Positions 13,399 through 32,397 are shown, counted from the first letter of the stretch. The stretch: DNA of 33,699 nt from Bryobacteraceae bacterium (GCA_030041035.1 JASHOO010000170.1:1-33699), one strand, 5' to 3'. The notes: generated by a model from the letters alone, not told the origin. Program-made: numbers and translations.

Positions 13399-13560
13399 TC
13401 AGGCTAGAATCTCTTTGATTACTTGACCCGCCGACGCCGGGGGCCGCTCGTTCTGACCATTGTGCAGATAGGTCGTCTTCAGGTGGTTGAGCCCCATTGT
13501 CCGGAGAATCGTCGCGTGGATGTCATGCACGTTCGCGGGCCTTCCGAGCGTCTTGAGCGC
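13399..13560 (-). pseudogene. DUF1501 protein, C-terminal tail only
   Basis: The minus-strand frame NVHDIHATILRTMGLNH, then TYLHNGQNERP and GQVIKEILA before the stop matches the last 50-60 residues of DUF1501 proteins (secreted, sulfatase-like fold, usually about 450 residues with a Tat signal). Homology stops around 13545-13560, where an oppositely oriented recombinase fragment begins. The gene has therefore lost about 85-90 percent of its length to an insertion or deletion. DUF1501 genes usually sit next to DUF1553 cytochrome-like genes; no such partner is in the window. Confidence 0.68.
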
Positions 13561-14230
13561 GGCAGAGATCACCCGGATTCTCGATCACACCCGCAACCTG
13601 AAGCATTGGACGATCATCGCGACGTTTTACGCCACTGGGCTTCGCTGCAACGAACTGAGGAATCTCTAGGTTCACGATATCGACAGCCGGTGCATGTTCA
13701 TCCACGTCCGAGAAGCCAATGGCGGCATTCCGCGGGATATCCCACTCACCCCGCACCTGCTGGAGCGGCTCAAGATTTATCGGTGTTGGCGCAGGCCGAC
13801 CGATTGGTTATTCCCCTCCAAGATGCGGCCCGATCAGCCAATGGAGCGCAAAACCATTCGGATGGCGTGTAACCTCGCCGGACTGCGCGCAGGCATTGAC
13901 CGTTCGGTTACGCCCCACGTTTTTCGACATAGTTGCGCTACGCACATGCTGGAAGCAGGTGCAGATCTGCGCACCATTCAAGTGCTGCCAGGACATGCCG
14001 ACATCCAGACCACAGCTCAGTACCTGTGCGTCTCGACGACCAGGCTGCAGGCGGCGCTCAACCCGTTCGATGTTCTGCAACTGAAACCGATTTACCGCTC
14101 CCAGAACGACCATCGACAAGGTGAGCGAGCATCGGCTGGAAGTCGCCGATGTCTTTCGCCAGCACGACCAGGAATACCTCGATCGATGGGGCCATGTTAT
14201 CTCTACACAACACCTTCGGGCATTCCGTGA
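13541..14230 (+). pseudogene. Tyrosine recombinase of an IS91-like element, 5' truncated, internal amber stop
   Basis: The frame reads SAAEITRILDHTRNLK, FYATGLRCNELRNL, a TAG stop (13667-13669), then without any frame change a [13 protein letters not shown] segment, [53 protein letters not shown] and [11 protein letters not shown]. This is the catalytic domain of the tyrosine recombinases that accompany IS91-type transposases. The R, HxxR, H and Tyr catalytic residues are all still encoded. The TAG replaces a residue that is normally Lys in this family. The N-terminal core-binding domain is missing. Recognisable homology ends near 14095; the remaining frame overlaps the transposase start, which is the normal arrangement. 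Confidence 0.75.
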
Positions 14231-14340
14231 CATCTGCGCATGCCGCACCGCCGCCCTAGGGGATCACGTCGAACAGTGCGATGGCTGCTCCCGCCAGATC
14301 ACCACCTACGACTCCTGCCGAAATAGACACTGCCCTATAC
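14121..14340 (+). pseudogene. IS91-family HUH transposase, N-terminal fragment
   Basis: From a GTG at 14121 the frame reads [13 protein letters not shown], then [41 protein letters not shown]. The CxxC...CRNRHCP arrangement is the N-terminal zinc-binding domain of IS91-family (Y2, rolling-circle) transposases. After RNRHCP the expected KCQ is replaced by unrelated sequence, which places the breakpoint at about 14336. About 72 of roughly 400 residues remain. The HUH and tyrosine motifs are lost. Confidence 0.75.
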
Positions 14341-14371
14341 CTGCTCCCTTGCAGGAGACAGCGATTCCACG

Positions 14372-15529
14372 CTACGCCTTAACCTTATTCTGCGCCTCCG
14401 CTTGGGCCGCCTGGAACAACGCCTTCATGTACGCAAACCCGTAGGCACATTCGGCGTAGCGCCCGCCCACCATCTTCGGTGTGTGGTCCCACATCACGTT
14501 GCCATCATAGTTCACTTCCACAAGAGCCTTCGCTATCTTGTACATGTCGTGGTAGCCGTTGTCGATAAAGGTCTCCACAAAATGCGGCAGCGGCGCGCTT
14601 ATATTTCTGAAGTGTATCTGCCAAATCTTCTCTGGTCCAAAGTACCGGATCATCTCCACGGGGTCCTTGCCCGTCAGCGTTCGCCCGCCCTCGAGCCAGG
14701 TTCCGCAGCACAGAGCAATGCCCACGTTGGGGCTGTTCGCAATTTCCAGGGCCCTCTTGTAGCCTTCAAAGCTCGTAAAGATGCAGCGCGGAACCCCGGC
14801 CAACATCGGCACCGGCGGATCCTCAGGGTGAATTCCAATGCGAACGCCCACCTCTTCCGCTACCGGAGCGACCTCCTTGATGAAGTAGGTGTAGTTATCC
14901 CAAATTTCTTTTTCAGTGAAGACCCGTCCGTTGGAGAGCGGTGGATAGTATTTGATCCCGTTCCACTCGCCGTAAATGTTCGGGCTCGCCATGTCAAACG
15001 CGCGCGCCTCGGCTCCGCGAATCGTCTCCCGGCCGCTGTGCCAGATACCGTTGCCCGAATGCACATACGTCGTATAGTAGAGCCCTGCCTTGCTCAAGTT
15101 GCGAAGATACTGCTTATACTCCTCGATCTTCTGGTCACGGCCGGGGAGGTTGAGGACAATTTCCGGAATAATCTGAACCTCACCAATAGTCCAGACTGTA
15201 ATCCCCGCATCCGCATAGCGCCTCTTGATTTTCATGAACCATTCAAGGGTACGCTGATCCGGTGTTGTATCCACGTTCACATACTTGGCCCCAATCTGGG
15301 TGAGGAAGAGCAGCCGGTCATCGGTGGGCATGGCCGGCTCATCGTTGCTCGAGAATTTGATTCCCGGTGCGTTCGTATACTCGATCGCCGACGCCGTGCC
15401 TGCGGAAGGTAGAAGCGCCGAGGCGCCCAGAACACCGCCAACGGCAAGTTTCACGACCTCTCTCCGGTTGGGGCTGGTGATTGGATTAGTGAATTCACGC
15501 ACGCTTGAGTCAGTCGAACTGGTTCCCAT
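14372..15529 (-). CDS. Tat-exported mannonate dehydratase-like (UxuA-family) TIM-barrel protein
   Basis: A 385-residue protein starting at an ATG with GAGGAGA seven bases upstream. Residues 20-48 form a twin-arginine signal (NRREVVKLAVGG, hydrophobic core, TASA). The mature part is a UxuA/xylose-isomerase-like TIM barrel with the family motif HPEDPP (His234), a CCGTW segment at 274-278, IHFRN at 305-309 and WDHTPKM at 347-353, where UxuA proteins carry metal and substrate ligands. UxuA converts D-mannonate to 2-keto-3-deoxygluconate in the cytoplasm. A periplasmic location makes another sugar-acid or sugar-phosphate-type substrate possible, so the reaction is uncertain. It follows an esterase fragment by 24 bases on the same strand and was probably in an operon with it. 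Its 3' end lies just beyond the IS91-like remnant and appears undamaged. Confidence 0.82.
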   Translation of the reverse strand: MGTSSTDSSVREFTNPITSPNRREVVKLAVGGVLGASALLPSAGTASAIEYTNAPGIKFSSNDEPAMPTDDRLLFLTQIGAKYVNVDTTPDQRTLEWFMKIKRRYADAGITVWTIGEVQIIPEIVLNLPGRDQKIEEYKQYLRNLSKAGLYYTTYVHSGNGIWHSGRETIRGAEARAFDMASPNIYGEWNGIKYYPPLSNGRVFTEKEIWDNYTYFIKEVAPVAEEVGVRIGIHPEDPPVPMLAGVPRCIFTSFEGYKRALEIANSPNVGIALCCGTWLEGGRTLTGKDPVEMIRYFGPEKIWQIHFRNISAPLPHFVETFIDNGYHDMYKIAKALVEVNYDGNVMWDHTPKMVGGRYAECAYGFAYMKALFQAAQAEAQNKVKA

Positions 15530-15553: not shown

Positions 15554-15955
15554 CTAGTGTAGCGTTTCTGGCACCGTGTTAAGTGGCTTCGCCCAGCGGA
15601 AATTGGGGAAAACCGCATAATGCCAGCCAGAGCCGCCATGAGCTATCGTCATGGTAGCGCTGGCGTTCCTGGGCGCTTGGTAGAAGCGGATAAAGTCTTC
15701 GGTGCCCACCACGAGGCGCGTACGCACACCTTCGTAGTTGTTGTGCATCTCATCGTCGCGGTACTCGATGGGAAAGCCGCGCGGCCCCACGAAGAATTCC
15801 GAAGAGCTCATAAAGTTCGACGCGCTCCCAACCAGATGCGGATATTTTCCGGCCACCCAAAACGACATGAAGCCACCCATCGAGAGGCCCGCCGTGGCAC
15901 GGTGCTCACGGTCGGCGATCGTGCGGTAGTGCGCGTCGATGTACGCCACTTGGAG
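15554..15955 (-). pseudogene. Putative esterase (enterochelin-esterase/Fes-like), 5' truncated
   Basis: The frame contains YIDAHYRTIADREHRATAGLSMGG, where GLSMGG holds the nucleophile Ser of the esterase family related to Fes and feruloyl esterases. It continues with FVGPRGFPIEYRDDEMHNNYEGV and GSGWHYAVFPNFRW, where the His would complete the triad. Upstream of about 15955 the homology ends abruptly and a stop appears, so roughly the first half of the enzyme (including the oxyanion-hole strands) is missing. The last residues after FPNFRW also look atypical. A GTG at 15949 could start a 131-residue product, but it would not fold as a full esterase. It was probably the upstream partner of the UxuA-like gene. 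Confidence 0.68.
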
Positions 15956-16534
15956 CTACGTGAGAATGCGGCAGTCCTTGGATACAATCCGCAGGGCGAA
16001 ATAGTCAAGTTGCGAGAGGGTAAGAATGAACTCATCTGCCTCGCGAACAACCCCAACAACACCCGATTCAGCGTCGCTTGTTACCATCGCGATCTGGAGC
16101 CGTATATGGCGCGCGGTCGTGAGCTTTTAGCTCAGAAAATCACTGGGCACAAGCGCGACGACATCCGCTGGAAGGAGGTTTCCGAGGGGAAACTGTCTTT
16201 GCCGCGCGAGCCTCGCACGCTCTACGTTCTCACCGGCACTGGCTTCGACGCCACTACAAATCAGATGACCGATGCGTACTTGCGATGGGTCATTTATGTG
16301 CCCTTTGCCACGCCGGAGTCCACCGGGCTATCGACGAAGGCAAGCGACAGCGCGCCTTGGCTGATGAATCCCGGTACGGCAGGAGCGCACATCATGATCA
16401 ATCCCCAAGAAAGTAGTTTGCGTAGCTTAAACCAGCATTGCTTGGTCCGACGCTACCGCAGTGCCGGAAGTGTGTGGATTTCGCTGATGGTGCGGATTGA
16501 TGACGACAACCCGACTTCCGGTTCCCGGAGGTAA
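15950..16534 (+). pseudogene. Fragment of a conserved protein of unknown function
   Basis: The plus-strand frame from 15950 reads ELRENAAVLGYNPQGEIVKL, GKNELICLANNPN, FSVACYHRDLEPYMARGREL, PREPRTLYVLTGTGFD, LRWVIYVPFATPESTGLS and PWLMNPGTAGAHIMINP. This matches, from memory, a family of roughly 200-240 residue exported proteins of unknown function common in Acidobacteria and Bacteroidetes. The signal peptide and first residues are missing because the frame begins at the esterase breakpoint. The part after HIMINP (about 16405) is no longer family-like, so the 3' end is probably altered too. A longer open frame back to 15620 is only antisense to the esterase. Confidence 0.6.
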
Positions 16535-16670
16535 TCCGCGAGTAACGCGTTTTAGTTGAAAGTGAGCAACGCCGCTGTTGGCTGCCGTGGAATTGTGCCT
16601 GTTTACGAAGCTCATGTCATCAAGAATCCGGCGGCCCGTCAGGCAGAAGATCGTGCGAGTTCATGCGGTA

Positions 16671-16699
16671 TTGACTCGTCGGCAATTTCGTGATTTGAT
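16671..16699 (+). promoter_or_regulatory. Candidate sigma-70 promoter of the GlcG-like gene
   Basis: TTGACT (16671-16676), a 17-base spacer, then TTTGAT (16694-16699). The -35 matches the consensus at five of six positions and the -10 at four of six. GGAGG (16705-16709) follows, 10 bases before the ATG at 16720. The leader would be very short, about 14 bases. Confidence 0.4.
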
Positions 16700-16719
16700 T
16701 CGACGGAGGCAATCAACGC

Positions 16720-17118
16720 ATGATCAACCCGGAAACAGCGCGCAAGGTGATTGCGGCGGCAGAAAAGAAAGCCGCAGAAATCGGCCAGCCGATGAACATC
16801 GCCGTGGTGGACGCCGGCGCAAAGCTGGTGGCGCACGTACGAATGGATGGCGCTTGGACCGGCTGCATCGACATTTCCATCAACAAAGCATTTACCTTAT
16901 ACGCTCTTGATATCGCGACCAAGGACCTGGCGCAGCATTCCCAATCTGGCGGTCAGTTCTATGGCATTCATGCGACGAATCATGGCCGCATCATGGTCTT
17001 TGCGGCCGGCATTTCCGTTAAGGAAGGCGGCAAGGTTGTGGGCGCTATCGGCGTCAGTGGCAGATCAGGCGTGCAGGACCACGAGGTCGCCGAAGCGGGC
17101 GCCGCGGCCATTCACTAA
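16720..17118 (+). CDS. GlcG/HbpS-family protein
   Basis: A 132-residue cytoplasmic protein of the GlcG/HbpS (DUF336) family. Residues 3-20 (NPETARKVIAAAEKKA) form the first helix, followed by IAVVDAGAKLVAHVRMDGA at about 27-45, SINKAFTLYAL, a GGQFYGIHATNHGRIMVFAAGI stretch and VVGAIGVSGRSGVQDHEVAEAG at the end. Some family members bind haem (HbpS, an accessory of redox sensing in Streptomyces); others are encoded in glycolate or cobalamin/diol operons with no known reaction. There is no signal peptide. The next gene on this strand, a MocR-type regulator, starts 219 bases downstream and may or may not share a transcript. Confidence 0.9.
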   Translation: MINPETARKVIAAAEKKAAEIGQPMNIAVVDAGAKLVAHVRMDGAWTGCIDISINKAFTLYALDIATKDLAQHSQSGGQFYGIHATNHGRIMVFAAGISVKEGGKVVGAIGVSGRSGVQDHEVAEAGAAAIH

Positions 17119-17337
17119 GCCCAACTCGGACACGCCCGAGATGAACACGCCACCGCCCAAGCCGGTATACGGTTGCTATATGTGTCCGTTTCTTCTCGTG
17201 ACACTCTCGTTGCACGCTGCGACATAAGAGTGGTCGAAGCTACCCACCACTTGAAGGCGCTTCGATAAGACCACTATGATTGAGCGAAGGCCGCGTGAAA
17301 TCATCGCGATGCACGCGAGCAAGGGGCAAGGGGGTCG

Positions 17338-18876
17338 ATGAGCAGCTCGGGTGGACCGAAAGATCCGATTCTGCTGAAATCATCGATGACAAAGAAGCCG
17401 CATAGAGCTGCCGCGCCGATGATCGCCGTAGATCGCGGGAGTGAAAAGCCACTACACCGCCAGATCTACGACGCCTTTCGCGCGATGATCCTCGACCGCA
17501 GATTGGAATCCGGCCAGCAGATTCCATCCACGCGCGCCTTGGCCGATGAGCTGGGAATCTCACGGATTCCAGTCCTGGACGCCTATGCTCAGCTTCTAGC
17601 GGAAGGCTACATCGAAAGCCGTTCTGGGGCCGGTACGTTTGTGAAACGTTCGCTCTCGGATCAGTTTCCGAGCGTACGTCCGACGGCGCGGAGCGTTCTG
17701 AGCCATCCAGGCAACGAAGCCATCTCGCGATTGGCCAGGCTTCTGCCCGTGGAACGAACACCCTGGTTCCCGAGCTCCGGAGCTTTCAGCGTCGGGCAGA
17801 TCGCTTACGATCATTTTCCTTTTCGCGTCTGGTCCGACTTGGTTACGCGGCATGTGCGGAAAGTGCGCGTCAGCTCGATGAATTATGCCGACCCGATGGG
17901 CTCCAAGGAATTTCGCGAGGTGATCGCGGTTTATCTGCGAACCGCGCGAGCCGTTCGCTGCGACGCTTCTCAGATCATGATTGTCAGCGGTTCGCAGCAT
18001 GCATTGGATCTGTCGGCACGTGTCCTGCTCGAGTCTGATATTCCGGTGTGGATCGAGGAGCCCGGTTATGAATTGCTGCGGCACACGTTGCTTCTTTCCG
18101 GCTGCCGGCTCGTTCCTGTGCCCGTGGACAGCGAGGGACTGGATGTCGCTGCCGGCATGAGCCTGTGCCGGATCGCACGCGCGGCCTTTGTCACTCCCTC
18201 TCATCAATATCCGCTCGGTGCCACTATGAGCGCTGCGCGACGTCTGCAGTTGCTCGAGTGGGCGCATCGTCACAACGCCTGGATCGTCGAGGACGATTAT
18301 GACAGCGAATATCGATATGAAAGCATGCCCGTAGCATCCATGCAGGGACTGGATCCAGGCTTGCGCGTCATTTACATCGGAACTTTCAGCAAAACGCTCT
18401 TCCCTTCCTTGCGTCTCGGCTATATCGTAATTCCACCGCCGCTCATAGCACACTTTCTGGCAGTGCGCCGCGCCAACGATCTGTTTCCATCACACCTCTA
18501 TCAGGCCGCTCTCGCTGATTTCATTGAAGCGGGCCATTTCACACGGCACATCCGAAAAACCCGGCAGCTATATGCTGAGCGGCGCAATGCTCTGGCCCAA
18601 GCACTTCGCAAGGAGTTCGGCTCCGAGATCGAAATTCTCGGCGCGGAAGCCGGCATGCATCTGGTAGTCACGCTTCCACCGGGGCATTCCGACCAGAAGA
18701 TTGCGGCGCGGGCCGCACAGGACGGGCTCTGGCTGTGGCCCCTTTCCACTGCTTACAACGGCCCCAGTGTGCGTCAGGGCTTCATTCTCGGCTTCGGCGG
18801 AACGAGAGCGGCTGACATGCTCCATCAAGTGCGGCGGCTGCGTAAGGCTATTCGTGAAAGTGGTAATGACGCCTGA
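17338..18876 (+). CDS. MocR/PdxR-type regulator: GntR helix-turn-helix fused to a PLP aminotransferase-like domain
   Basis: A 512-residue chimeric regulator. Residues about 36-103 are a GntR-type winged helix (PLHRQIYDAFRAMIL, GQQIPSTRALADELGISRI, YIESRSGAGTFV). Residues about 140-505 form a fold-type I aminotransferase domain with GSQHALDL at 218-225, TPSHQYPLG at 286-294, the PLP-contacting VEDDYDSEYR at 317-326, and Lys352 in GTFSKTLFPSLRLGY as the Schiff-base lysine. MocR proteins sense PLP or amino compounds and control vitamin B6, GABA, taurine or polyamine genes. An in-frame Met at 17386 could also be the start. It lies between a GlcG-like gene and a large TonB-type receptor gene in the same direction, so it may control one or both. 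Confidence 0.93.
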   Translation: MSSSGGPKDPILLKSSMTKKPHRAAAPMIAVDRGSEKPLHRQIYDAFRAMILDRRLESGQQIPSTRALADELGISRIPVLDAYAQLLAEGYIESRSGAGTFVKRSLSDQFPSVRPTARSVLSHPGNEAISRLARLLPVERTPWFPSSGAFSVGQIAYDHFPFRVWSDLVTRHVRKVRVSSMNYADPMGSKEFREVIAVYLRTARAVRCDASQIMIVSGSQHALDLSARVLLESDIPVWIEEPGYELLRHTLLLSGCRLVPVPVDSEGLDVAAGMSLCRIARAAFVTPSHQYPLGATMSAARRLQLLEWAHRHNAWIVEDDYDSEYRYESMPVASMQGLDPGLRVIYIGTFSKTLFPSLRLGYIVIPPPLIAHFLAVRRANDLFPSHLYQAALADFIEAGHFTRHIRKTRQLYAERRNALAQALRKEFGSEIEILGAEAGMHLVVTLPPGHSDQKIAARAAQDGLWLWPLSTAYNGPSVRQGFILGFGGTRAADMLHQVRRLRKAIRESGNDA

Positions 18877-18890
18877 GCACGGAGTGGTCA

Positions 18891-18919
18891 TTGAGTTCGG
18901 AATTACGTTAGTGTAAAAT
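18891..18919 (+). promoter_or_regulatory. Candidate sigma-70 promoter of the second Oar-like receptor
   Basis: TTGAGT (18891-18896), exactly 17 bases, then TAAAAT (18914-18919). This is four of six and five of six matches to consensus. It begins 15 bases after the regulator's stop codon and would give a leader of about 145 bases before the ATG at 19071. Confidence 0.48.
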
Positions 18920-19070
18920 TTCAAAAATCAAGTAGCTCCTAACGGGCAATTTTGAGCCGCAAAGCCGGGTAAGCTCCTCATTTGGCTCCTTGGCCCCTTT
19001 TCATTCACTCGCAGTGTCTGCGAATTCCGGATGTCACGATCAATCGATTAACCGATCGAGGAGGATGAGT

Positions 19071-22000
19071 ATGCCCAATCGACAGACACGAGTTCCCTAC
19101 GCTTTTTTTGCGTCTTTGCTATTGCCCATCATCGCCTGTGCACAATCCACTTTCGGCGACATCCGGGGCACAACGCGCGATCCACAAGGTCTCGCGCTCC
19201 CTCATACAGTAGTAACTCTCCGAAATTTGGACGAGAATACCACCCGCTCTGCCATCAGCGACGACGTCGCTAACTTCCTGTTTGAGAATCTGAAGCCGGG
19301 CAACTATTCCATGACCGCGTACAAGGATGGGTTTGCCCCATCGCCGGTCACCACCGTGGAACTGGTCGCTCGCCAAAGCGCACGTGTAGATCTTTCGCTA
19401 TCGCTGGCGCAGGTGCAGCAAACCGTCAACGTAGAGGCTTTATCGGAACAGATCAACACGGAAAATGGCGTGGTCGGCGACACCCGGGGCAACGATCAGT
19501 TGTTAAACATGCCGCTCAACTTCCGGGCGCAAACCACCAGCCCGCTGGCGACGTTGGCTCTTTCGCCGAACGTGGTCACTGACAGCCAGGGAAATATCGC
19601 GGTCGGAGGCGCAACGTTTTCGCAAACCGGTTTCTCGGTCGACGGCATCTCTACTGCCGATGTTGTGCACAATGGCTCACTGCTGAACACGTATCCATCC
19701 TCAGAGGGGCTTGCAGAACTGAAAGTGACCGCGTTCAACAACAGTGCCGAATTTTCCCAAGTAGCCGACGTGACGTTCATCACCAAAAGCGGTACGAACC
19801 AGCTTCACGGCAGTCTGTTTGAGTATTTGCAAAACGACGTGCTGGACGCGACCATTCTGAACTTCAGTACCAAGGCACCCAAGCGGTTCAACACATTCGG
19901 GGGCAGTTTGGCCGGTCCCGTAACGTTTCCACATTTCTATAATGGCCGGGACAAGACGTTCTTCTTCATGGATTACGAGGGCAATCGGCGAAGAACGGCT
20001 AGCCCGGAACAGGACCTGGTGCCAACAGCGGCGGAGCGGGACGGGAATCTTAACGGGCTGCCAATCATCAGCCCGCAAACGGGCCAACCGACGAATGCCT
20101 TGATCGATCCTCTCAGCGGCTCGCCGTTTCCGAATAACACGATCCCCTTATCGCGGTTGAATCCGGTGTCCCTGAATCTGCTCAATGGATATTACCCTCT
20201 GCCCAATGTTCCTTCAGGAGGCAGCTACAACTACGAAGTTCTCCAATCCATTCCCTCGAATACCGACGGTTTTGACCTCAGAGTAGATCAGTACATCACT
20301 TCCACTCAGCAGGTCTATGCGCGGTTCAGTTGGAAAAATCTTTTGTCGCAAACGGGCCAATCGGGTCCTGTGAATCCGCTGCTACCGAACGATATCGATA
20401 CGGAGCACGATCGGAGTCTCATCGTTTCGTACAACTACGCCATTAACCGCAAGATGGTGAACGAATTTCGTTTCGGCTTCACGAACAACTTTCTCTATCA
20501 GGCGTTTCCGATCGAGGGCGCTGTGGCTGACAAGCAACTCGGGCTCACCGGCATGAGCTTCGCGAATCATCCCAACACGGGCGCGTTTCCGACATTCAAC
20601 TTCTCTGATGGTACCGGTTTCACGCAGATCGGTCGGGACAAGGACGGGCCCCAGGCATCTCGGACCTATCAGTTCACCGACAATCTGAGCCGTACCATGG
20701 GCAAACACACATTGCGTGTTGGTATGGATGTCCGCCATGTCTTTTACGAAACCGTTGTCCGATGGGGCCAGTCGGACGATTTTGGGGCATTCACGTTCAA
20801 CCAGGGCGTCTTTACCGGCAGTTCCTTCGGCGATTTCTTGCTGGGCGCGCCGAACACATCCTTCATTGTTGAGAGCAGTCCCAACACGAATGAGTCGGCT
20901 GTGCATTGGGGAACTTACGCGCAAGACACATGGCAGGTGAACGATCGGCTCACCGTGAATTTCGGATTGCGTTGGGAGCTGAACCCGCAATTTGCGGAAA
21001 ATACCGGCGATATTGCCAATTTCCTTCCCATCAATGGCGGCGAAGTGGTGGTGCCGGATATTCTCTTGAACAAAACGGTTCCCTCCAGTTCGCTGCTTCA
21101 AGCTAACTACAACGCCTTTCTGGTTTCTTTCAATGCCTGCCAGCTTGCCACCAGGAATATGTCGCTTCCTTGCTCCAAGGTGGTGACGGCAAGCCAAGCC
21201 GGCCTCCCTGCCAGCCTGCGTAACATCTACTGGCATGACTTTGACCCACGCGTAAGCTTCGCCTTCCGTCCATTTCGCGATAACAAAACTGTTTTTCGCG
21301 CCGGCTTCGGCATTTTCACCAACACGATGTTGGGGCCGCTGGCCTATACCTCCATTGGCATCCCGCTGGGCGCTCCTTATACCTACGTCAACGACAACAA
21401 CGGCGTCCCGCTGTTCACATTTCCGCGAACCTCACCCGCTAACCAACAGACACAGTATGGCGGAACCGGCTTCTACGACGCCATGAATCCGAATTTTAAA
21501 GATCCTCAGACCGCACAGTGGAACATGACCTTCGAACGCGAGTTGACGCCGTCAATGGCTATTCGCATCAGCTATGCGGGGATGAACTCGTATCGTTTAA
21601 ACGTGACGGAAGATTACAATGCAATTCCACCGAGCACGCAGCCTTACGTCCCGAGTCCATACGTCGATCCGCGCGCTCCATATCAAAATTGGGTGCAGCT
21701 CTACGTTAGTCAGAACGCCGGTTTTGCAAACTACCAGGGTGGCTCCGTTGAAATTACCCATCGGCTTTCGCACGGATTGTACTTCCAGGCTAACTACACC
21801 CTCCAAAAGGATCTGAGCGACGCGCAAGGCGATGCGCCGGGCGGCTTTGTTCCGGAAGTGCTTCTGTTTACGCCTACCGCCGATCAATTCGATCTGCGCC
21901 TAGGACGGGGGAATCTCGCCGGAATGCCGCGGCAGCGGTTTTTGCTGACGGGTACGTATCAGTTGCCGTTTGGGTCGAAACGTGAGTGGTCGAGTAAGAA

Positions 22001-22499
22001 CAAATTCATTAACAGTGCGTTGGGTGGCTGGGACTTGAACACGATTACGCTAATGCAAACCGGACCGTGGCTCACACCGACTATCAGCCCCACGGCCGAT
22101 CAGTCCAATACCGACATTGTTGGGCGTGGCGGCATCACCCTGCGCCCGGACGAGATCGGGAATCCTTATTCGAACGTCAGCGGCGATCTTGAGTGGAACC
22201 TTAACGCGTTCGCTCCCACGCCGGCGAATGCCGGCCGAATCGGGAACGCGGGCGTGGGAATTTTGCAAGGCCCAGGAACAATTGCCGTGTCGGCGGGGCT
22301 AGCCAAAATTTTTCAGGTTCGGGAGCAGCTTCGATTCCGCTTTGAAGCGACATTCACGAATGCCCTGAATCATACTAACTTTGCCCCACCAGCGTCGGAT
22401 GTCAGCAGCCCAGCGACATTCGGCATTTTACAGTCGGCGCAGACTGCCGGGCAGGGCGGCAACCGGACAGGGCAACTGGCGTTACGCATGGATTTTTGA
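19071..22499 (+). CDS. Oar-like TonB-dependent receptor with N-terminal carboxypeptidase-regulatory domain
   Basis: 1142 residues from the ATG at 19071, which has GAGGAGG six bases upstream; the in-frame Met codons at 18990 and 19065 are less likely. It has a signal peptide at 1-25 (FASLLLPIIACAQ) and a carboxypeptidase-regulatory-like beta-sandwich at about 28-115 (GDIRGTTRDPQGLALPHTVV, LFENLKPGNYSMTAYKDGF). A plug domain follows (GNIAVGGATFSQTGFSVDGIS, TKSGTNQLHGSLFEYLQND), then a large barrel ending FRFEATFTNALNHTNF and the terminal Phe of an outer-membrane protein. It should import or anchor a large ligand using TonB energy. The ABM/zinc-ribbon gene 33 bases downstream is probably in the same transcript, and a MocR regulator lies immediately upstream, which points to an amine or amino-acid-related ligand. 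That last step is inference. Confidence 0.93.
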   Translation: MPNRQTRVPYAFFASLLLPIIACAQSTFGDIRGTTRDPQGLALPHTVVTLRNLDENTTRSAISDDVANFLFENLKPGNYSMTAYKDGFAPSPVTTVELVARQSARVDLSLSLAQVQQTVNVEALSEQINTENGVVGDTRGNDQLLNMPLNFRAQTTSPLATLALSPNVVTDSQGNIAVGGATFSQTGFSVDGISTADVVHNGSLLNTYPSSEGLAELKVTAFNNSAEFSQVADVTFITKSGTNQLHGSLFEYLQNDVLDATILNFSTKAPKRFNTFGGSLAGPVTFPHFYNGRDKTFFFMDYEGNRRRTASPEQDLVPTAAERDGNLNGLPIISPQTGQPTNALIDPLSGSPFPNNTIPLSRLNPVSLNLLNGYYPLPNVPSGGSYNYEVLQSIPSNTDGFDLRVDQYITSTQQVYARFSWKNLLSQTGQSGPVNPLLPNDIDTEHDRSLIVSYNYAINRKMVNEFRFGFTNNFLYQAFPIEGAVADKQLGLTGMSFANHPNTGAFPTFNFSDGTGFTQIGRDKDGPQASRTYQFTDNLSRTMGKHTLRVGMDVRHVFYETVVRWGQSDDFGAFTFNQGVFTGSSFGDFLLGAPNTSFIVESSPNTNESAVHWGTYAQDTWQVNDRLTVNFGLRWELNPQFAENTGDIANFLPINGGEVVVPDILLNKTVPSSSLLQANYNAFLVSFNACQLATRNMSLPCSKVVTASQAGLPASLRNIYWHDFDPRVSFAFRPFRDNKTVFRAGFGIFTNTMLGPLAYTSIGIPLGAPYTYVNDNNGVPLFTFPRTSPANQQTQYGGTGFYDAMNPNFKDPQTAQWNMTFERELTPSMAIRISYAGMNSYRLNVTEDYNAIPPSTQPYVPSPYVDPRAPYQNWVQLYVSQNAGFANYQGGSVEITHRLSHGLYFQANYTLQKDLSDAQGDAPGGFVPEVLLFTPTADQFDLRLGRGNLAGMPRQRFLLTGTYQLPFGSKREWSSKNKFINSALGGWDLNTITLMQTGPWLTPTISPTADQSNTDIVGRGGITLRPDEIGNPYSNVSGDLEWNLNAFAPTPANAGRIGNAGVGILQGPGTIAVSAGLAKIFQVREQLRFRFEATFTNALNHTNFAPPASDVSSPATFGILQSAQTAGQGGNRTGQLALRMDF

Positions 22500-22531
22500 G
22501 AATACCCAATTCGACAGCCTAAGGAGATGCA

Positions 22532-23032
22532 ATGCCAATTTACCAAAGCATGCAGAGAGTGCGCTTCTCGAGCCCGGACGGCTATGAGAAATTCAAGTTG
22601 CTGTTCGGAGAGGTGCGCAATCAATTGAAGACATTACCGGGATTCTTGCACCTTACCTGGTGGGTTCATCCAAAAGACCCTTCCTGGTACAACGAAGTCA
22701 GCATCTGGACCAGCTTTGAAGCACTTCGCGAGTGGCACATGAACGGCTACCACAAGCAAGCCAAAGAGTGGGCCGTCCGGAGCGGCGCCATCATGGAAGA
22801 CATCATCACCAACTTCGAGCTGAAGAATACGCGCTTGATCCGCGTGTGTCCCTGTTGCGCTCTGATCACCGACAAGGCTTACGACCTTCATTATGAACAG
22901 AAGGCGCTGGCCGAGTTGTGTCCCAAGTGCGGCTTTCAATTCCCGGTGATGCCCGAGAGTTCCGATAGTACCGCGGTGTTTCGGGATGTCGACTCGCCCG
23001 TCCCCGTGCCCTTGGCAAAAGCGGGCGATTAG
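22532..23032 (+). CDS. ABM-fold (DUF3291-like) protein with a C-terminal zinc ribbon
   Basis: A 166-residue protein with AAGGAG at 22520-22525 before the ATG. Residues 1-95 look like an antibiotic-biosynthesis-monooxygenase type ferredoxin-like barrel (YQSMQRVRFSSPDGYEKF, LPGFLHLTWWVHPKDPSWYNEVSIWTSFEAL, FxxHM). Residues 104-137 form a rubredoxin-like zinc ribbon with Cys106, Cys108, Cys109, Cys130 and Cys133 (VCPCCAL...LCPKCGF). ABM-fold proteins include quinone-forming monooxygenases, haem-degrading enzymes and many sensors; the metal ribbon is an unusual addition. Co-expression with the upstream receptor is likely from the 32-base gap and absence of a terminator. No signal peptide is present, so it acts in the cytoplasm. 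The reaction is unknown. Confidence 0.72.
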   Translation: MPIYQSMQRVRFSSPDGYEKFKLLFGEVRNQLKTLPGFLHLTWWVHPKDPSWYNEVSIWTSFEALREWHMNGYHKQAKEWAVRSGAIMEDIITNFELKNTRLIRVCPCCALITDKAYDLHYEQKALAELCPKCGFQFPVMPESSDSTAVFRDVDSPVPVPLAKAGD

Positions 23033-23125
23033 CGCTGTGGCGGGAGTGGGGCTTGAGTCTGTAGCTGACGTAGCATTCAGTTTAGCCGGAACGGGGCTTG
23101 CGCCGGCCCCTGAGAGACTTTGGTT

Positions 23126-23627
23126 TTAATCCCTCGCTGCTCGCGCCAATCGCGTTCTGAGATTCAAATGGACGTATTGCCGAATCGTGAGGTGGTCTGG
23201 CTCCGGCTCCCAAGACACCGCGTTCGCGTAAATTGACACCGAGGTCGCCGGTGGCGGTATCGAAGCATCCCAAATCAGCCATTCACCTCCGCTTTCGAGG
23301 ACGCGGTAAGCTTCGGCAGAGACCTTCTCATGGATTAGCGGGCCTCATGAACATCCGGGAGAAAAATGCCGTTACCGTGTGAAATCTGTTCTTGGGGAAC
23401 TTCAGATCGGAGGCATCCATCACGATTTTGAGAAACCCTGCAGGGGCGTCGTCCAATTCCTTCATCGAAATGTCGATCGCGACGACTTGCTGACCCTTCA
23501 GCCGACCGTGCCCCGACAACACCCCGAGATCGAGGATTCACCTGGAGGCCACAAAATCCGGAATCACAATCTCCTCACGCTCGATTTCGGCGCGTGACGA
23601 TTGAGCACGGTTGGCTGCCGCAACCAT
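23126..23627 (-). pseudogene. Class I SAM-dependent methyltransferase, multiply disrupted
   Basis: From an ATG at 23627 the minus strand reads EIEREEIVIPDFVASR, a TGA stop (23540-23538), then in the same frame ILDLGVLSGHGRL (the glycine-rich SAM motif I), QQVVAIDIS, MDASDLKFPKNRFHTVTAFF. A frameshift near 23340 then leads to HEKVSAEAYRVLESGGEWLIWDASIPPP, and a WEPEPDHLTIRQY segment precedes a stop at 23126. The order is that of a small class I methyltransferase, but it has one nonsense codon, at least one frameshift and a deformed C-terminus. It is convergent with the ABM/zinc-ribbon gene. Confidence 0.68.
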
Positions 23628-23701
23628 GAACCAAACGCACTGCCTCCGAGTCATTGACAGCGTATAAAAGGCATTGCGGGAAGAACTAAATCGACTTAGG
23701 G

Positions 23702-25567
23702 TTAATTCGTGAGTGCTTGGTTGAGGATCTGGCCGACAGCCCGATGGGCTTCTTTGATCGCCGTGGTGTGGTCTGGCGCGCCGGACAGGTCAGTGTTGGC
23801 AAAGGCGATTCTTCCGAACGGAGCACGCCGAAGAATCTCACGCGGGGCGGGGTTCCCGTCCTTGCCAAAGAAGAAGCCCGGTTGCGGGCTCACGTAAGCG
23901 TGGCCCCAACGGTTGAGGATGATGCCGGCAATGTCCCGCTGCGCATCGAAACCTGACGCCGAAAACATTTCCTGGAGTTGCTCGCGAATCCTCCCCTCAT
24001 AATCCCGAAATGAAGTGGATAGAAGCTCCGCTCTCCCACGGTTTCCCTGCTGCTCAAGAGGTAAACCGGCATAATGAAAAAGGACCTTTAGAGTCAAAAT
24101 CACCGGGGAGTCCGGTCCGATTGCTTTGTCGTCCGTTGAGAACGTGGGCACCTTTCGGACAGCGGTAGAGTCGCCGAAGCCCTCGAACCATCGGGCGCTT
24201 GAAACGCCAAGCTTATAGAGGAAGCGCCAATTGCGCACCGCTACATTAGCCATCAGACAGGGTGAACGGTAAAACTGCGAATAGGCCTCCCGTTGTGCCG
24301 AAGGCAGGTCGCGAACGGCGTACTTCGTGCTCCACGACCCACCCGCCATCACTACCGATCGCGCCTTCAGGCGATAAACCTTCCCCTCACGCGTGTACGT
24401 CACGCGCACGGACCTCGATACCTCGGGATTTCCATCATGCCCAACACCAACCACTGTTGCCGCCACACGAATCCGTGTGGTCTGGCCTTCGCGGTCGAGC
24501 GCGGCAAAATCCACGTTGTTACGGCAAACTGCGGATAATGTGCGGGGACCGGTGATCGAGTGGGGAATCAGAGTCTTCACGAGCAAACGGCTAATGCCGG
24601 CATTACCTCCAGGGAAGGAATGCACTTGCGCATTGGGGTGCTCCGATTCGGGCGATTCTCCCGCCCAGGAATATGGGGCGTAGGCGGACAGAACATCCGG
24701 TCCCGCACCGTGTCCACCGCCTTCATCGAGGAAGAACGTCCGGATCGTCGCGCGGCTCAGACCGAATTCCTGAATCAAATGTTCTTCGATGGTCATGCTA
24801 TCTAACTTGCGGGATTTCTCATCGCCAGGGTGGTCGAACGGGAGGCCGCCCCGGTCGCGTTTTCGTTCCGCGTACTTCAGAAGCTCCGCCCGCGTCGAAT
24901 CTGCGATCGGCGCTCCTCTAAACTTTTTCGCCCATGGGTCGATTAGCCACATTCCAGGCCTCTGCCCGAATTTAGCTCCAAAGTAGAATCCCATTGGCCC
25001 TCTCGTGTCTTCAAAGCTCACGCCCAGTGGAATCTCCGGCGAGGAAACGGCCCACGTTTGATAGGTAAACTCACGGCTATCCAAACCGATCAAATCGTAA
25101 AAATTCCCGATAAAGCTATGCGAGTACGGAACTGTAAAATGATCGGATCCCTGCGGAGCCATAAGCCGTTTGCCGTCCACTACAAACTCATTGCGCTTGG
25201 CCTCGCCGCCGAAGATTGGGTGATTTTCAAGGATGAGACAGCGCAGCTTCGGCCCTCCTTGCTTCGTGAGAAAGAGCGCTGCCGCGAGCCCACTGATCCC
25301 TCCGCCCACGATGACGCAATCAAACAATTCCCCAGTGTCGATCGCATACTCCGGGGGCGACTCAAAAACGTGATCGCGGAGTTGATGACCGGCTTTGACG
25401 ACCTCGAAGGTGTTTCCGTTTGAATCGGAATAATCACCCACGCCCCCATATCCAGTCCAATCCTCGCGCCCCAACAGTTGCTTTGGCGTCAACGATTCAA
25501 GCAACAGGCTGCCGGAAGCCAGCAGCGTGGAATCTAAAAAGTCTCGGCGGCAGATCTGTTGATTCAT
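23702..25567 (-). CDS. FAD-dependent oxidoreductase of the spermidine dehydrogenase-like family
   Basis: 621 residues from the Met at 25567 (MNQQICRRDFLDSTLLASGS); an in-frame GTG at 25612 would add 15 residues. RRDFL plus a hydrophobic stretch suggests a Tat-type or short leader, so the enzyme is probably periplasmic. Residues 83-100 carry the dinucleotide-binding motif GGGISG followed by ENHPIFGGEAKRNEF, which is characteristic of spermidine dehydrogenase-like proteins (SpdH). RLMAPQGSDHF, DEGGGHGAGPDVLSAY, FPGGNAGISRLLV and the C-terminal RIAFANTDLSGAPDHTTAIKEAHRAV, which closes the FAD site, complete the family layout. SpdH cleaves spermidine to diaminopropane and aminobutanal with an external electron acceptor. 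The substrate of this homologue is not certain. No cytochrome partner is adjacent. Confidence 0.85.
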   Translation of the reverse strand: MNQQICRRDFLDSTLLASGSLLLESLTPKQLLGREDWTGYGGVGDYSDSNGNTFEVVKAGHQLRDHVFESPPEYAIDTGELFDCVIVGGGISGLAAALFLTKQGGPKLRCLILENHPIFGGEAKRNEFVVDGKRLMAPQGSDHFTVPYSHSFIGNFYDLIGLDSREFTYQTWAVSSPEIPLGVSFEDTRGPMGFYFGAKFGQRPGMWLIDPWAKKFRGAPIADSTRAELLKYAERKRDRGGLPFDHPGDEKSRKLDSMTIEEHLIQEFGLSRATIRTFFLDEGGGHGAGPDVLSAYAPYSWAGESPESEHPNAQVHSFPGGNAGISRLLVKTLIPHSITGPRTLSAVCRNNVDFAALDREGQTTRIRVAATVVGVGHDGNPEVSRSVRVTYTREGKVYRLKARSVVMAGGSWSTKYAVRDLPSAQREAYSQFYRSPCLMANVAVRNWRFLYKLGVSSARWFEGFGDSTAVRKVPTFSTDDKAIGPDSPVILTLKVLFHYAGLPLEQQGNRGRAELLSTSFRDYEGRIREQLQEMFSASGFDAQRDIAGIILNRWGHAYVSPQPGFFFGKDGNPAPREILRRAPFGRIAFANTDLSGAPDHTTAIKEAHRAVGQILNQALTN

Positions 25568-25860
25568 GCCCAATGTCTTCTCGTATTGGTCGTTTCCTCC
25601 TGACGCGGACACCTCAAACCTCCGACACCCGGATAATCGCCGGGATCCTCATTCCGGCACCAACACTTGTACGCACTTCACTCACAAACCTAGATGCACT
25701 TTGCTAGTCTCGTCCTACGTTCCAGTAGCGTGGCACGCGACGATTTCAAAACCATTCGAATCTAGACTACCTTAATAAACTACTTTGACTCAACAGAACG
25801 CACTCTGGCTTCCGGCCCCAGCCAAGCTATGCCCTCGAGAACTGGCCAACCTGGTCCGTT

Positions 25861-26137
25861 TTGCGGAGTTCGTTTCTGCCTCAGCGATCGGGAGCGGGTG
25901 GTTTACGAAATGACCGAGTGCACTTCCGCTGGCGAGACTCGCAAGACCACAACCAGATCAAAGAGATGTCACTGGGGGCAGTCGAGTTCATCCGCCGGTT
26001 CCTCCTCCATGTGCTCCCCAGCGGGTTCGTCAAGGTGCGACAGTTCGGATTTCTTTCCAACCGCAATCGAAAGAAGATGGTCCGGCGCTGCCGCGAAGTC
26101 CTGCCAGCGTCCTCGGCGGAAGGCATCATCATGGGTC
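25861..26137 (+). pseudogene. IS91-family transposase, C-terminal fragment
   Basis: The frame reads DRVHFRWRDSQDHNQIKEMSL, then AVEFIRRFLLHVLPSGFVKVRQFGFLSN and MVRRCREVL, the conserved C-terminus of IS91-type HUH transposases just downstream of the second catalytic Tyr region. The catalytic part upstream is absent or too degraded to read (before about 25880), and the sequence after about 26130 is unrelated. It is a relic in the same orientation as the N-terminal fragment at 14121-14340. Confidence 0.7.
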
Positions 26138-26301: not shown

Positions 26302-27336
26302 TCAGTTCGATTCGCTGAACTTAATACGAGGATAAAGTCCATTTCCTAAGGGAAGCGCCTCACACGTGCCCAGGTTCAGATTATTGGTCTCTCCGGTAGT
26401 GCCCGCATTTGCAAGACACGTTGGCGCAGCGGAGGATCCATCATTCACCTGCAGCAACACGGTGAAACTGGTGCCGCCTATCCTGCTGAACTGCGCTTGC
26501 GAGCCACCGGCATCGCCGAAGATACCGAACTCCGTCTTGTTCCACACCGAGGAAATATCAAGCATGCTGTCGGGGACGCAAGTGCCCCATCCCGCGCCTG
26601 TATTATCGTAGACCACGGCACAATCTTGGCCTCCAGGCGCTGCCCCAGCGTGCAACGACAGGTTCGCGAGGTCCGTAATCGGAAAATCGGGTGCGCTTGC
26701 GGCATTGCTGCTGACATAGCAATCGTCGCCCAATTGGTTCCAGTTGTCGGGACACGAGCCATAATTGAGCAGCCAATACTGCATAAACACCCCTCCACCA
26801 CACCCCCAAATATCGCAATCTTGATCCGTCCCATAAACGAATTGTTGCCAAACATGACAATCGAAGGTGGTGGAACCGTTACATGCGGAGGTGGTCATCC
26901 GGTCGTTCGTATTGATCTGCAGAGTGTATTCGTTTGGACCATCAGTGGCGTCATTACCTCCGACGCTGGTTACGGATTGCGTCGATGCATCTAAGAAGCT
27001 TCCACCTGCCCAGAAGATCAGTCCCCCCGGCGTATAGGCGACGTAGTCGTTTCCGTTGCCGACCACATCAGGCCGAGCGGTCATAGCTGTGCGGTGCACC
27101 GGATGAAGGCGCGGGCGTGCGGCCGTGCAATCCACCTTCTCGCGAGTGAGGCTGGGGTACGACTCATGAAAGCACCCTGCCTCCTGCGGAGGGTTTTGCG
27201 CCATGATGGCGCGCCATTTTTCGAGCGCCACCGGATCGACGGCTGGGCGTGCATCAGCCGCACGTAAAAAGGTGGGCAGCTGCGTCAGACATACCACGAC
27301 CGCCAAATGTTTTGCGTAAGTGATCATGCGTTTCAT
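26302..27336 (-). CDS. Secreted cysteine-rich protein of unknown function
   Basis: 344 residues with GGAGGAAG just before the ATG. A signal peptide spans residues 1-26 (LAVVVCLTQLPTFLRA-AD). The mature protein contains about 12 cysteines, an even number expected for disulfides in an exported protein. Recognisable blocks are WRAIMAQNPPQEAGCF, GNGNDYVAYTPG, EYTLQINTNDRMTTSAC, DCHVWQQFVYG, FMQYWLLNYG, CPDNWNQLGDDCY and GTTGETNNLNLGTC. From memory these belong to a family of uncharacterised secreted proteins in diverse soil bacteria, perhaps with a jelly-roll or lectin-like fold given the alternating beta pattern. No catalytic motif is evident. It lies 268 bases downstream of the kinase gene on the same strand and closes the unit with a strong terminator. 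Confidence 0.82.
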   Translation of the reverse strand: MKRMITYAKHLAVVVCLTQLPTFLRAADARPAVDPVALEKWRAIMAQNPPQEAGCFHESYPSLTREKVDCTAARPRLHPVHRTAMTARPDVVGNGNDYVAYTPGGLIFWAGGSFLDASTQSVTSVGGNDATDGPNEYTLQINTNDRMTTSACNGSTTFDCHVWQQFVYGTDQDCDIWGCGGGVFMQYWLLNYGSCPDNWNQLGDDCYVSSNAASAPDFPITDLANLSLHAGAAPGGQDCAVVYDNTGAGWGTCVPDSMLDISSVWNKTEFGIFGDAGGSQAQFSRIGGTSFTVLLQVNDGSSAAPTCLANAGTTGETNNLNLGTCEALPLGNGLYPRIKFSESN

Positions 27337-30893: not shown

Positions 30894-31318
30894 GATGCGG
30901 ATCACCTCAAGGACTTCGTCATCGGCCGGTACACGCTGTGTGCGAAGAACTTCGACGCCCTGATCTTCGGATATTACGAGGGCGACCGGCTCTGTACGTT
31001 GCGCGAACCCGCAACGGCTTCACGCCGACCTTGCGGGCGCAATTGTTCCGGCGGTTCCGCGGGCTGGAGATCGCTGAGTGTCCGTTCGCGAATCTGCCCG
31101 AGGCGAGAAGCGGACACTGGAGAGAGGGCCTCACTGCTGACAAGATAAAGGAGTGCCGTTGGCTGAAACCGGTACTGGTGGGATAGGTTGAGCTCGTAGA
31201 GTGGACGCCGGACGGTCACCTGCGGCATTCGATGTTCATTGCGCTCAGGGAGGACCGGGAGGCGGCCGCGGTACGGCGGGAAAGCTGGTTCACCGATTGC
31301 AAGAAACGCTCCGGCTGA
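30894..31318 (+). pseudogene. ATP-dependent DNA ligase (LigD-type) C-terminal fragment, disrupted
   Basis: The first frame reads FVIGRYTLCAKNFDALIFGYYEGDRL. A base is missing near 30992 and the next frame continues YVARTRNGFTPTLRAQLFRRF, ECPFANLPEARSGHW, LTADKIKECRWLKPVLVG, then a TAG stop (31184-31186) and, in the same frame, VELVEWTPDGHLRHSMFIALRED. This is the OB-fold C-terminus of bacterial NHEJ ATP-dependent DNA ligases (LigD ligase domain or a stand-alone relative). Nothing of the adenylation domain is present upstream. Ligase homology ends near 31285, where the oppositely oriented phosphatase fragment ends too. Confidence 0.75.
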
Positions 31319-32397
31319 TCCGATGCCATTGCACACTGGCTGCGAAGATTCGCCTGCAAGTTTGCCATTAACAGTGATGCCGCGATTCCCTTGCCCGAAA
31401 TATCGCCGATCACCAGGCCAAGCCGTTGTTGCCCTAAATTAAGGAAATCGTAGTAATCGCCCCCGACCTCGCGGGCTTGAACACAGACCCCCGCATATTC
31501 AAGTGTTTTTAGCGGCGGTGCCGCTTGAGGGAAGAGCCTCGCTTGCACCTGTTTCGCAATTTCAAGTTCCCGGGCTGCGCGACGTTCGGTTTCCACCTTC
31601 TCGGCGATCGCCCGGCGGCGCGCTTCAATTTGCCGCGTCATGTCGTCCCATCCCGCAAGTACAAAGGAATTCCCGTCCAGATCTTCGAAGGTTGTGAAGA
31701 TCCCGCCCCAAGTCCCCGTCTGTGGAGGGTGGCGAAAGCGAACGCCGCGCTTACGCCAGATGCGGAATTTGGCGGCAACATCTTCCGTTACAAACACCGC
31801 CTGCCCTGAGCGGCCGATGAACTGATGTTCCGCAGAATCGGGTTTGGGAGCGATGAGCGCAAGAAGCGTCGCGCCGTTCGGCGGAGCGACCAGAATAAAG
31901 CGGCCGCGCTCACCATATTGGTAATCCACGATGAGGCGAAAGCCAAGCTGGTCCAGATAGAATCGAAGGCTTCGATCCTGATCACGGACGAAGATAGGAA
32001 CATGATGCAGCCGGAGGTAGGTAGCCAGTTTTCTGTCCTGCTTCTGTTTCGGGGGGGCAACTTGGGCGATGCTCTTCGCCGCATCACGCTGCTCTTCTTC
32101 GGAGTGTGTGGCCGGACGCTTCCCGGCAATGCCGGTCACCCGCTGTGCCCGACGTGTCTGGAAATCCTTCGATTTGATTTGGACGAGTAGCGACTCATTC
32201 TTCGCTTTCAGCTCCTCGTACTGTCCAATCCATTGTTCCAGCGTGAGGCTCTGCAGAGTCGCGACGCGCACGGTCCGGTCAAGCCAATCGGTGGCTTCGC
32301 CTCCATGGAAGAAGAAATATCCTTCGGCCTTGGCGAGCGCCACCTGGAATCCCCTCTTCGCCAACTCGGCGTTGATGGCTTTGAGGTTGAGGGGCAT
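31216..32397 (-). CDS. N-terminal unknown domain + VOC domain + truncated SpoIIE (PP2C) phosphatase
   Basis: A 393-residue mosaic. Residues 1-70 (NLKAINAELAKRGFQVALAK, EATDWLDRTVRV, LTLEQWIGQYEELK) form a small conserved module of unknown role. Residues about 75-125 are a charged linker. Residues 128-250 are a VOC/glyoxalase-like domain (HHVPIFVRDQDRSLRFYLDQLGF, AVFVTEDVAA, FEDLDGNSFVLAGW). A short coiled-coil follows, then from 284 a SpoIIE-type phosphatase (AKQVQARLFP, EVGGDYYDF with metal Asp314, GDISGKG with Asp332). Family homology stops at about residue 372 (FLQSVNQL), roughly halfway through the phosphatase domain. The rest is junk translation through the LigD relic, so the metal site is incomplete and phosphatase activity is unlikely. 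Intact VOC-SpoIIE fusions are a recognisable acidobacterial architecture. No Shine-Dalgarno sequence precedes the ATG. Confidence 0.75.
   Translation of the reverse strand: MPLNLKAINAELAKRGFQVALAKAEGYFFFHGGEATDWLDRTVRVATLQSLTLEQWIGQYEELKAKNESLLVQIKSKDFQTRRAQRVTGIAGKRPATHSEEEQRDAAKSIAQVAPPKQKQDRKLATYLRLHHVPIFVRDQDRSLRFYLDQLGFRLIVDYQYGERGRFILVAPPNGATLLALIAPKPDSAEHQFIGRSGQAVFVTEDVAAKFRIWRKRGVRFRHPPQTGTWGGIFTTFEDLDGNSFVLAGWDDMTRQIEARRRAIAEKVETERRAARELEIAKQVQARLFPQAAPPLKTLEYAGVCVQAREVGGDYYDFLNLGQQRLGLVIGDISGKGIAASLLMANLQANLRSQCAMASDQPERFLQSVNQLSRRTAAASRSSLSAMNIECRR

What the first reader, a model, noticed from the sequence alone, without database searches (positions are those of the whole stretch)
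16671..25567. Candidate amine- or redox-related uptake locus: GlcG/HbpS, MocR regulator, Oar-like receptor, ABM/zinc-ribbon protein and SpdH-like flavoenzyme
This is the only stretch of the window where consecutive intact genes suggest a shared pathway. A PLP-sensing MocR regulator lies directly before a promoter-equipped outer-membrane receptor. The receptor is followed 32 bases later by a cytoplasmic ABM-fold/zinc-ribbon protein. A spermidine-dehydrogenase-like enzyme with a probable Tat leader is encoded on the opposite strand, beyond a dead methyltransferase. MocR regulators often control amine, GABA or vitamin B6 genes, and SpdH oxidises a polyamine, so an amine ligand is a testable idea. 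The grouping could also be chance in a rearranged region.
Basis: partly seen in the sequence, partly recalled or inferred. Interest (0 to 1): 0.62.

Follow-up and report, generated by a model that had tools for sequence, protein, structure and literature searches.

The report
Mobile MocR–receptor–monooxygenase-like gene module
Three of the five genes pointed out (a vitamin-B6-type regulator, an outer-membrane receptor and a small oxygenase-like protein with two cysteine pairs) form a real unit that also occurs in other soil bacteria, and the regulator plus small protein travel together across three phyla next to amine- and aldehyde-processing genes, while the other two genes are just neighbours.

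Summary
Comparing neighbourhoods splits the grouping in two. MocR (17338-18876), the Oar-like receptor (19071-22499) and the ABM/CxxC protein (22532-23032) form a conserved unit. Two other Bryobacterales carry the same order (76-88% protein identity), and a third acidobacterium keeps an intact ABM gene behind a receptor relic. GlcG and the SpdH-like enzyme are near none of 30 related loci, so they are bystanders. The ABM/CxxC protein is a rare (2 of 101 genomes of its family), sharply conserved family (59-88% identity) in Acidobacteria, Proteobacteria and Actinobacteria. A MocR gene lies within about 5 kb of it in 20 of 30 loci, although these MocRs fall into several clades. A direct repeat of period 24 bp, the usual MocR operator form, precedes it in 9 of 27 loci (shuffles 0.015), but not in the window. 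Elsewhere the neighbours are cupin, aldehyde dehydrogenase, acyl-CoA ligase, TonB receptor or, in three distant lineages, methylamine (N-methylglutamate) genes. Best reading: a transferable MocR-controlled uptake-and-oxidation unit for an amine-type compound. That it is a unit is well supported; the ligand and the chemistry are inferred. New variant of a known kind.

The parts
17338..18876 (+). MocR-type (GntR wHTH + aminotransferase-like) PLP-dependent regulator; true start probably ATG 17386, where homology to L003/L005 begins
   Evidence: Pfam GntR and Aminotran_1_2; GabR structures E 3e-68; PLP lysine K352 in TFSKTL; 83% and 76-77% identical orthologues in L003/L005; dN/dS about 0.10, with dS above 1
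18877..19070 (+). MocR-receptor intergenic region, presumed promoter/operator; conserved block 18942-19024 including ACTCGCANNGTCTGCGAA at 19007-19024
   Evidence: Alignment with L003 and L005; among loci fetched the element occurs only before these receptor genes; no 24-bp direct repeat in the window; promoter-like hexamers 18891-18919 not above chance
19071..22499 (+). Oar-like outer-membrane beta-barrel receptor with carboxypeptidase-regulatory domain; Shine-Dalgarno GGAGG at about 19060, start ATG 19071
   Evidence: PF25183 and PF13620; 80% and 75-76% identical orthologues in the same position in L003/L005 and a 116-aa C-terminal relic (72%) before the ABM gene in L004
22532..23032 (+). 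ABM-fold protein with C-terminal CxxC-x20-CxxC (zinc-ribbon-like) domain; presumed enzyme of the module, presumably co-transcribed with the receptor (32-bp gap with its own Shine-Dalgarno)
   Evidence: PF03992; 47 invariant columns in 30 homologues; ABM fold over residues 1-105, Z about 12; 31 related loci, 30 of them at 59-88% identity
16720..17118 (+). GlcG/HbpS-like protein; neighbour, not part of the module
   Evidence: PF03928; no homologue in any of 30 ABM loci
23100..23660 (-). Remains of a SAM-methyltransferase-like gene, broken by stops and frameshifts; not part of the module
   Evidence: Six-frame reading, judged by eye; no match in related loci
23702..25567 (-). SpdH-like FAD enzyme with probable Tat leader; neighbour, not part of the module
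   Evidence: Spermidine dehydrogenase 7d9i E 2.5e-51; no homologue in any of 30 ABM loci

Best explanation
MocR, Oar-like receptor and ABM/CxxC protein form one horizontally mobile, MocR-controlled uptake-and-oxidation unit. Proposed working: the MocR protein, with PLP bound in its aminotransferase-like domain, senses an amino compound (inferred) and switches the promoter in 18877-19070. The receptor and the ABM protein are then made from one message (inferred from a 32-bp gap). The receptor takes the compound through the outer membrane (inferred). The small cytoplasmic ABM protein, probably a dimeric barrel with a metal-binding pair of CxxC motifs, oxidises or rearranges it (inferred), and the products enter general aldehyde/acyl-CoA or methylamine routes. 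In other bacteria the same regulator-ABM pair is joined to other outer-membrane transporters and to cupin, aldehyde dehydrogenase, acyl-CoA ligase or N-methylglutamate-pathway genes. GlcG and SpdH are bystanders. Shown: conservation, co-occurrence, operator-like repeats in relatives, purifying selection. Inferred: ligand, chemistry, direction of regulation.
For: 31 relatives of the ABM protein found, 30 of them at 59-88% identity. A MocR gene lies in 20 of these 30 loci, as the adjacent gene in most and with the receptor in between in L003/L005. Same MocR-receptor-ABM order in two other Bryobacterales; a receptor relic 31 bp before an intact ABM gene in L004, and a 144-aa MocR fragment elsewhere in that genome. 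dN/dS 0.06-0.10 against L003 for all three genes. Patchy presence: 2 of 101 genomes of the family, 1 of 396 in the phylum sample, 3 of 200 in the sphingomonad family; two copies on a Rhodococcus plasmid. YTGGNNC direct repeat at exactly 24 bp before the ABM gene in 9 of 27 loci, shuffle mean 0.015, the form described for MocR operators (PMC5320631). Type III glutamine synthetase plus GlxBCD-type genes beside the ABM gene in 3 of 30 loci, expected 0.05, P 2.6e-5; dimethylamine demethylase genes in two of these. Aldehyde dehydrogenase in 8, cupin in 9, TonB receptor in 8 loci.
Against: No operator repeat of that type in the window, nor in L003/L005. The linked MocRs are not one clade. Ten ABM loci have no MocR. 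The methylamine genes are not beside the acidobacterial module: the window's genome has a complete operon elsewhere, but, judged by the glutamine synthetase, so may both sampled relatives of its genus, which lack the ABM gene. The sphingomonad genes fit non-amine substrates too. The enzyme activity is untested and the model is of moderate confidence (pLDDT 69).
Confidence: 0.55

Rival explanations
1. The module is a real MocR-controlled unit, but its substrate is not an amine: an aromatic, terpenoid or other hydrophobic plant compound taken up by the receptor and oxidised by the ABM protein like a cofactor-free polyketide/quinone monooxygenase.
For: Closest sequence hits in the PDB are SnoaB-type oxygenases. 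Partners include TonB receptors, DUF1329, acyl-CoA ligase and, by eye, a MetA-type porin-like protein and CoA-pathway enzymes. Carriers include aromatic-degrading genera (own knowledge).
Against: Three distant lineages have methylamine/dimethylamine genes beside it. Repeated use of MocR regulators, which are known to control PLP, GABA, taurine or ectoine genes (PMC5320631). A Methylobacillus genome carries it, and that genus lives on C1 compounds (own knowledge).
Confidence: 0.25
2. The ABM/CxxC protein is not an oxygenase but a sensor or scavenger for reactive aldehydes/imines arising from PLP-linked amine metabolism, comparable to ArqI of Pseudomonas aeruginosa.
For: ArqI (PA0709) structures are among the closest folds (Z 12.0-12.1), and ArqI responds to glyoxal (PMC12274486). 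Aldehyde dehydrogenases lie near in 8 loci.
Against: Fold similarity is shared by many ABM proteins at similar Z. Strong conservation of His, Trp and Glu in the barrel looks catalytic.
Confidence: 0.12
3. The five genes are a chance grouping in a rearranged region, with no functional link.
For: Pseudogene remains and an integrase-like ORF lie nearby; GlcG and SpdH never co-occur with the others.
Against: MocR-receptor-ABM order recurs in other genomes, and MocR-ABM pairing recurs in 20 of 30 loci.
Confidence: 0.05

Closest known systems
MocR/GabR subfamily regulators and their regulons (GabR, PdxR, TauR, EhuR)
   Same: Same domain layout, PLP lysine kept, adjacent divergent or tandem target gene, direct-repeat TGG-type operators in relatives
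   Different: The regulated core is an ABM/CxxC protein, not an aminotransferase or a PLP, taurine or ectoine gene. The main text of the paper on 825 MocR regulons does not use the words monooxygenase or cupin (supplements not read). No such operator in the acidobacterial version
ABM-domain proteins (SnoaB, LsrG, YgiN, ArqI, IsdG/MhuD)
   Same: Ferredoxin-like ABM fold over residues 1-105; PF03992
   Different: Added CxxC-CxxC domain; 47 invariant columns in a sharply bounded family; conserved Trp68 but a Lys at the apparent place of the IsdG haem histidine (by-eye alignment)
N-methylglutamate / dimethylamine catabolic clusters (gmaS, mgsABC, dmmABC)
   Same: Lie beside the ABM gene in Acidiphilium, Conexibacter and Acidimicrobiaceae
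   Different: Not in the window; ABM/CxxC protein not listed as a member of that pathway in the paper searches made (abstracts only)

Membership tests
MocR/GabR regulators | GntR winged helix plus fold-type-I aminotransferase-like domain | tested here: met
   PF00392 5.7e-17 and PF00155 1.5e-27; GabR 4n0b over residues 29-505
MocR/GabR regulators | PLP-binding lysine | tested here: met
   K352 in TFSKTL, the expected motif; binding itself untested
MocR/GabR regulators | Direct/inverted-repeat operator at the target promoter | tested here: inconclusive
   Found in 9 of 27 related loci; not found in the window, where a different conserved block exists
PdxR (PLP synthesis regulator) | Above the NCBIfam PdxR cut-off | tested here: met
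   432.5 bits against 320, but the rhizopine-MocR model scores higher (479, below its cut-off of 650)
PdxR (PLP synthesis regulator) | Linked to PLP-synthesis genes | tested here: not met
   None among the window genes annotated
ABM family (PF03992) | Profile score and barrel fold | tested here: met
   28.0 bits against 23.1; Z about 12 over about 100 residues, model pLDDT 69
IsdG-type haem monooxygenase | Asn/Trp/His haem-degrading triad | tested here: inconclusive
   Trp68 aligns with the conserved Trp; the His place appears to be invariant Lys78, but the alignment was made by eye
Cofactor-free ABM oxygenase (SnoaB-like) | Oxygenation of a substrate without cofactor | not testable with these tools
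   Needs enzymology
Zinc ribbon | Two CxxC knuckles binding zinc | tested here: inconclusive
   C106, C109, C130, C133 invariant; metal unknown, no fold match tested for residues 104-145
Oar-like TonB-dependent receptors | Outer-membrane barrel with N-terminal carboxypeptidase-regulatory domain | tested here: met
   PF25183 and PF13620
Oar-like TonB-dependent receptors | Plug domain and TonB box | tested here: inconclusive
   No Pfam plug hit; TonB box not looked for
Spermidine dehydrogenase SpdH | Full-length homology to solved SpdH | tested here: met
   7d9i, residues 20-628, E 2.5e-51; active-site residues not checked

The most novel reading that the evidence does not exclude
The ABM/CxxC proteins are an undescribed enzyme family, possibly a small metal-assisted oxygenase, that opens an aerobic route for an N-alkyl or other amine compound. 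They spread between phyla as a MocR-controlled cassette to which each lineage adds its own outer-membrane transporter.
Probability: 0.3. Interest if true: 0.66.

Novelty: new variant of a known kind. Interest (0 to 1): 0.5.

Why it matters
It turns a loose guess about one locus into a concrete, testable pairing found in three phyla, including a cultured strain with plasmid-borne copies (R. jostii RHA1, two copies on pRHL1). If the ABM/CxxC protein is an amine-linked oxygenase, it adds an enzyme type to soil amine turnover and gives a clue to the cargo of an Oar-like receptor, a very large and mostly unassigned receptor class in Acidobacteria.

Tried and rejected
Looked for GlcG, SpdH, the mannonate-dehydratase-like protein, the esterase fragment and the gene at 26302 near ABM genes elsewhere: none in 30 loci, so dropped. 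Looked at neighbours of six receptor paralogues of 47-61% identity for a shared cargo pathway: nothing consistent. Looked for the 24-bp MocR repeat in the window: none. Rfam found nothing in 16000-26000. Presence of type III glutamine synthetase genome-wide is a weak clue: 12 of 26 ABM genomes against 30 of 249 Pseudomonadota and 8 of 101 of the window's family, Fisher P 0.014 within Pseudomonadota. The families are not matched, and in the window's genus it is present without the ABM gene, so only the local adjacency is used. Literature searches found no description of a MocR-ABM pair. VIA-align and Foldseek give only a general ABM fold. The RHA1 record carries no annotation.

Full report
What was checked. 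The window lies in a 6.85-Mb draft genome (contig C53) whose nearest named relatives are Bryobacterales. The five genes of the finding exist and are intact. The FAD enzyme is indeed SpdH-like (7d9i, E 2.5e-51). The methyltransferase-like stretch before it is broken by stops. The promoter-like site before the receptor is no better than chance.

The grouping splits. A search with the ABM protein gave 31 loci. One is a distant outlier; the other 30 are 59-88% identical to the window protein. I called genes in each and compared neighbourhoods. Two other Bryobacterales, L003 and L005, have MocR, receptor and ABM gene in the same order and strand; proteins are 83/76%, 80/76% and 88/86% identical to the window's. 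A third acidobacterial locus, L004, has an intact ABM gene preceded by a 116-residue C-terminal relic of the same receptor ending 31 bp before it, and only a 144-residue MocR fragment on another contig of that genome. So all four acidobacterial loci most simply descend from a three-gene module. What follows the ABM gene differs: recA in L003 (by eye) and an NHL-like gene in L005 (by eye), as expected of a module that moved. GlcG and SpdH are near none of the 30. Selection is purifying on all three genes (dN/dS 0.06-0.10 against L003, though dS exceeds 1).

The module core is wider than Acidobacteria. The ABM protein has 47 invariant columns in 30 sequences and is rare: 2 of 101 genomes of the window's family, 1 of 396 in the phylum sample, 3 of 200 in a sphingomonad family, and two copies on plasmid pRHL1 of Rhodococcus jostii RHA1. 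Its tree keeps the Acidobacteria together. A MocR gene is present in 20 of the 30 loci, mostly the adjacent gene, head-to-head or in tandem. These MocRs are not one clade, so either the link is old and the regulators diverged, or MocR regulators were recruited more than once. Either way it argues for a signal that MocR proteins can read.

Operator. In the upstream 300 bp of the ABM gene, YTGGNNC repeats at exactly 24 bp occur in 9 of 27 loci. Every other spacing from 12 to 39 gives at most one, the reverse strand gives none, and dinucleotide shuffles give a mean of 0.015. MocR operators are known to be direct or inverted repeats one or several helix turns apart, often with TGG (PMC5320631). 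In the window, L003 and L005 this repeat is absent; instead 18942-19024 is conserved between the three, and the element ACTCGCANNGTCTGCGAA was found only before these receptors among the loci then held. The acidobacterial operator is therefore unproven.

Function. Residues 1-105 have the ABM fold (Z about 12 to many ABM proteins including ArqI and LsrG), on a model of moderate confidence. Invariant C106, C109, C130 and C133 suggest a bound metal; zinc or iron cannot be told. Neighbours elsewhere are cupins (9 loci), aldehyde dehydrogenases (8), TonB receptors (8), acyl-CoA ligases (6), DUF1329 proteins (2), and in Acidiphilium (L014), Conexibacter (L023) and Acidimicrobiaceae (L024) type III glutamine synthetase with GlxB/C/D-type genes, the N-methylglutamate pathway set. 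Two of these also have haem-dependent oxidative N-demethylase genes for dimethylamine (PF11927, PF22289, PF22290). By the density of such synthetases in ABM genomes, 0.05 neighbouring cases were expected and 3 seen (P 2.6e-5; this treats loci as independent). The window's genome has its own complete N-methylglutamate-type operon on contig C681, but its two sampled congeners have the synthetase without the ABM gene, so that is not evidence for the window.

Judgement. That MocR, receptor and ABM protein are one unit is well supported (about 0.9). An amine ligand is the leading reading, but the support is indirect (about 0.45-0.5). That the ABM protein is an oxygenase is about even. The literature held here describes no such pair, but supplementary tables of the MocR regulon paper could not be read.

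Limits. The loci come from back-translated patterns, so only close relatives are seen; sphingomonad loci are related to each other (L020 and L025 nearly identical); many are metagenome bins; gene calls are my own. Functions named by eye (recA, NHL protein, MetA-type porin, methyltransferase remains) were not profile-tested.

Noticed in passing
13423-14444: Integrase-like ORF (PF00589 at 13694-14230) overlapping an ORF that looks like a transposase fragment with a zinc-binding region; remains of a mobile element left of the locus.
   Followed up: partly
15554-16534: An esterase fragment on the minus strand meets an apparently N-terminally cut plus-strand ORF (15902-16534) of unknown family; looks like a rearrangement joint.
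   Followed up: no
14372-15529: Tat-leader-like protein of the mannonate dehydratase/xylose isomerase-like TIM-barrel group (PF03786), below the UxuA cut-offs.
   Followed up: no
L084:2653-11671 (G000 contig C681): Complete N-methylglutamate-pathway-like operon in the window's own genome, with a GntR-type regulator divergent to it; type III glutamine synthetase present in 8 of 101 genomes of the family.
   Followed up: partly
L083:12001-19178 (R. jostii RHA1 pRHL1): Two ABM-cupin pairs around a MocR gene, followed by an aldehyde dehydrogenase; a good place for a genetic test.
   Followed up: yes
2-2920: A second Oar-like barrel gene, related to the module's receptor, at the left end of the window.
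   Followed up: no
31216-32397: Glyoxalase-fold domain joined to a SpoIIE-type phosphatase domain, an unusual pairing.
   Followed up: no
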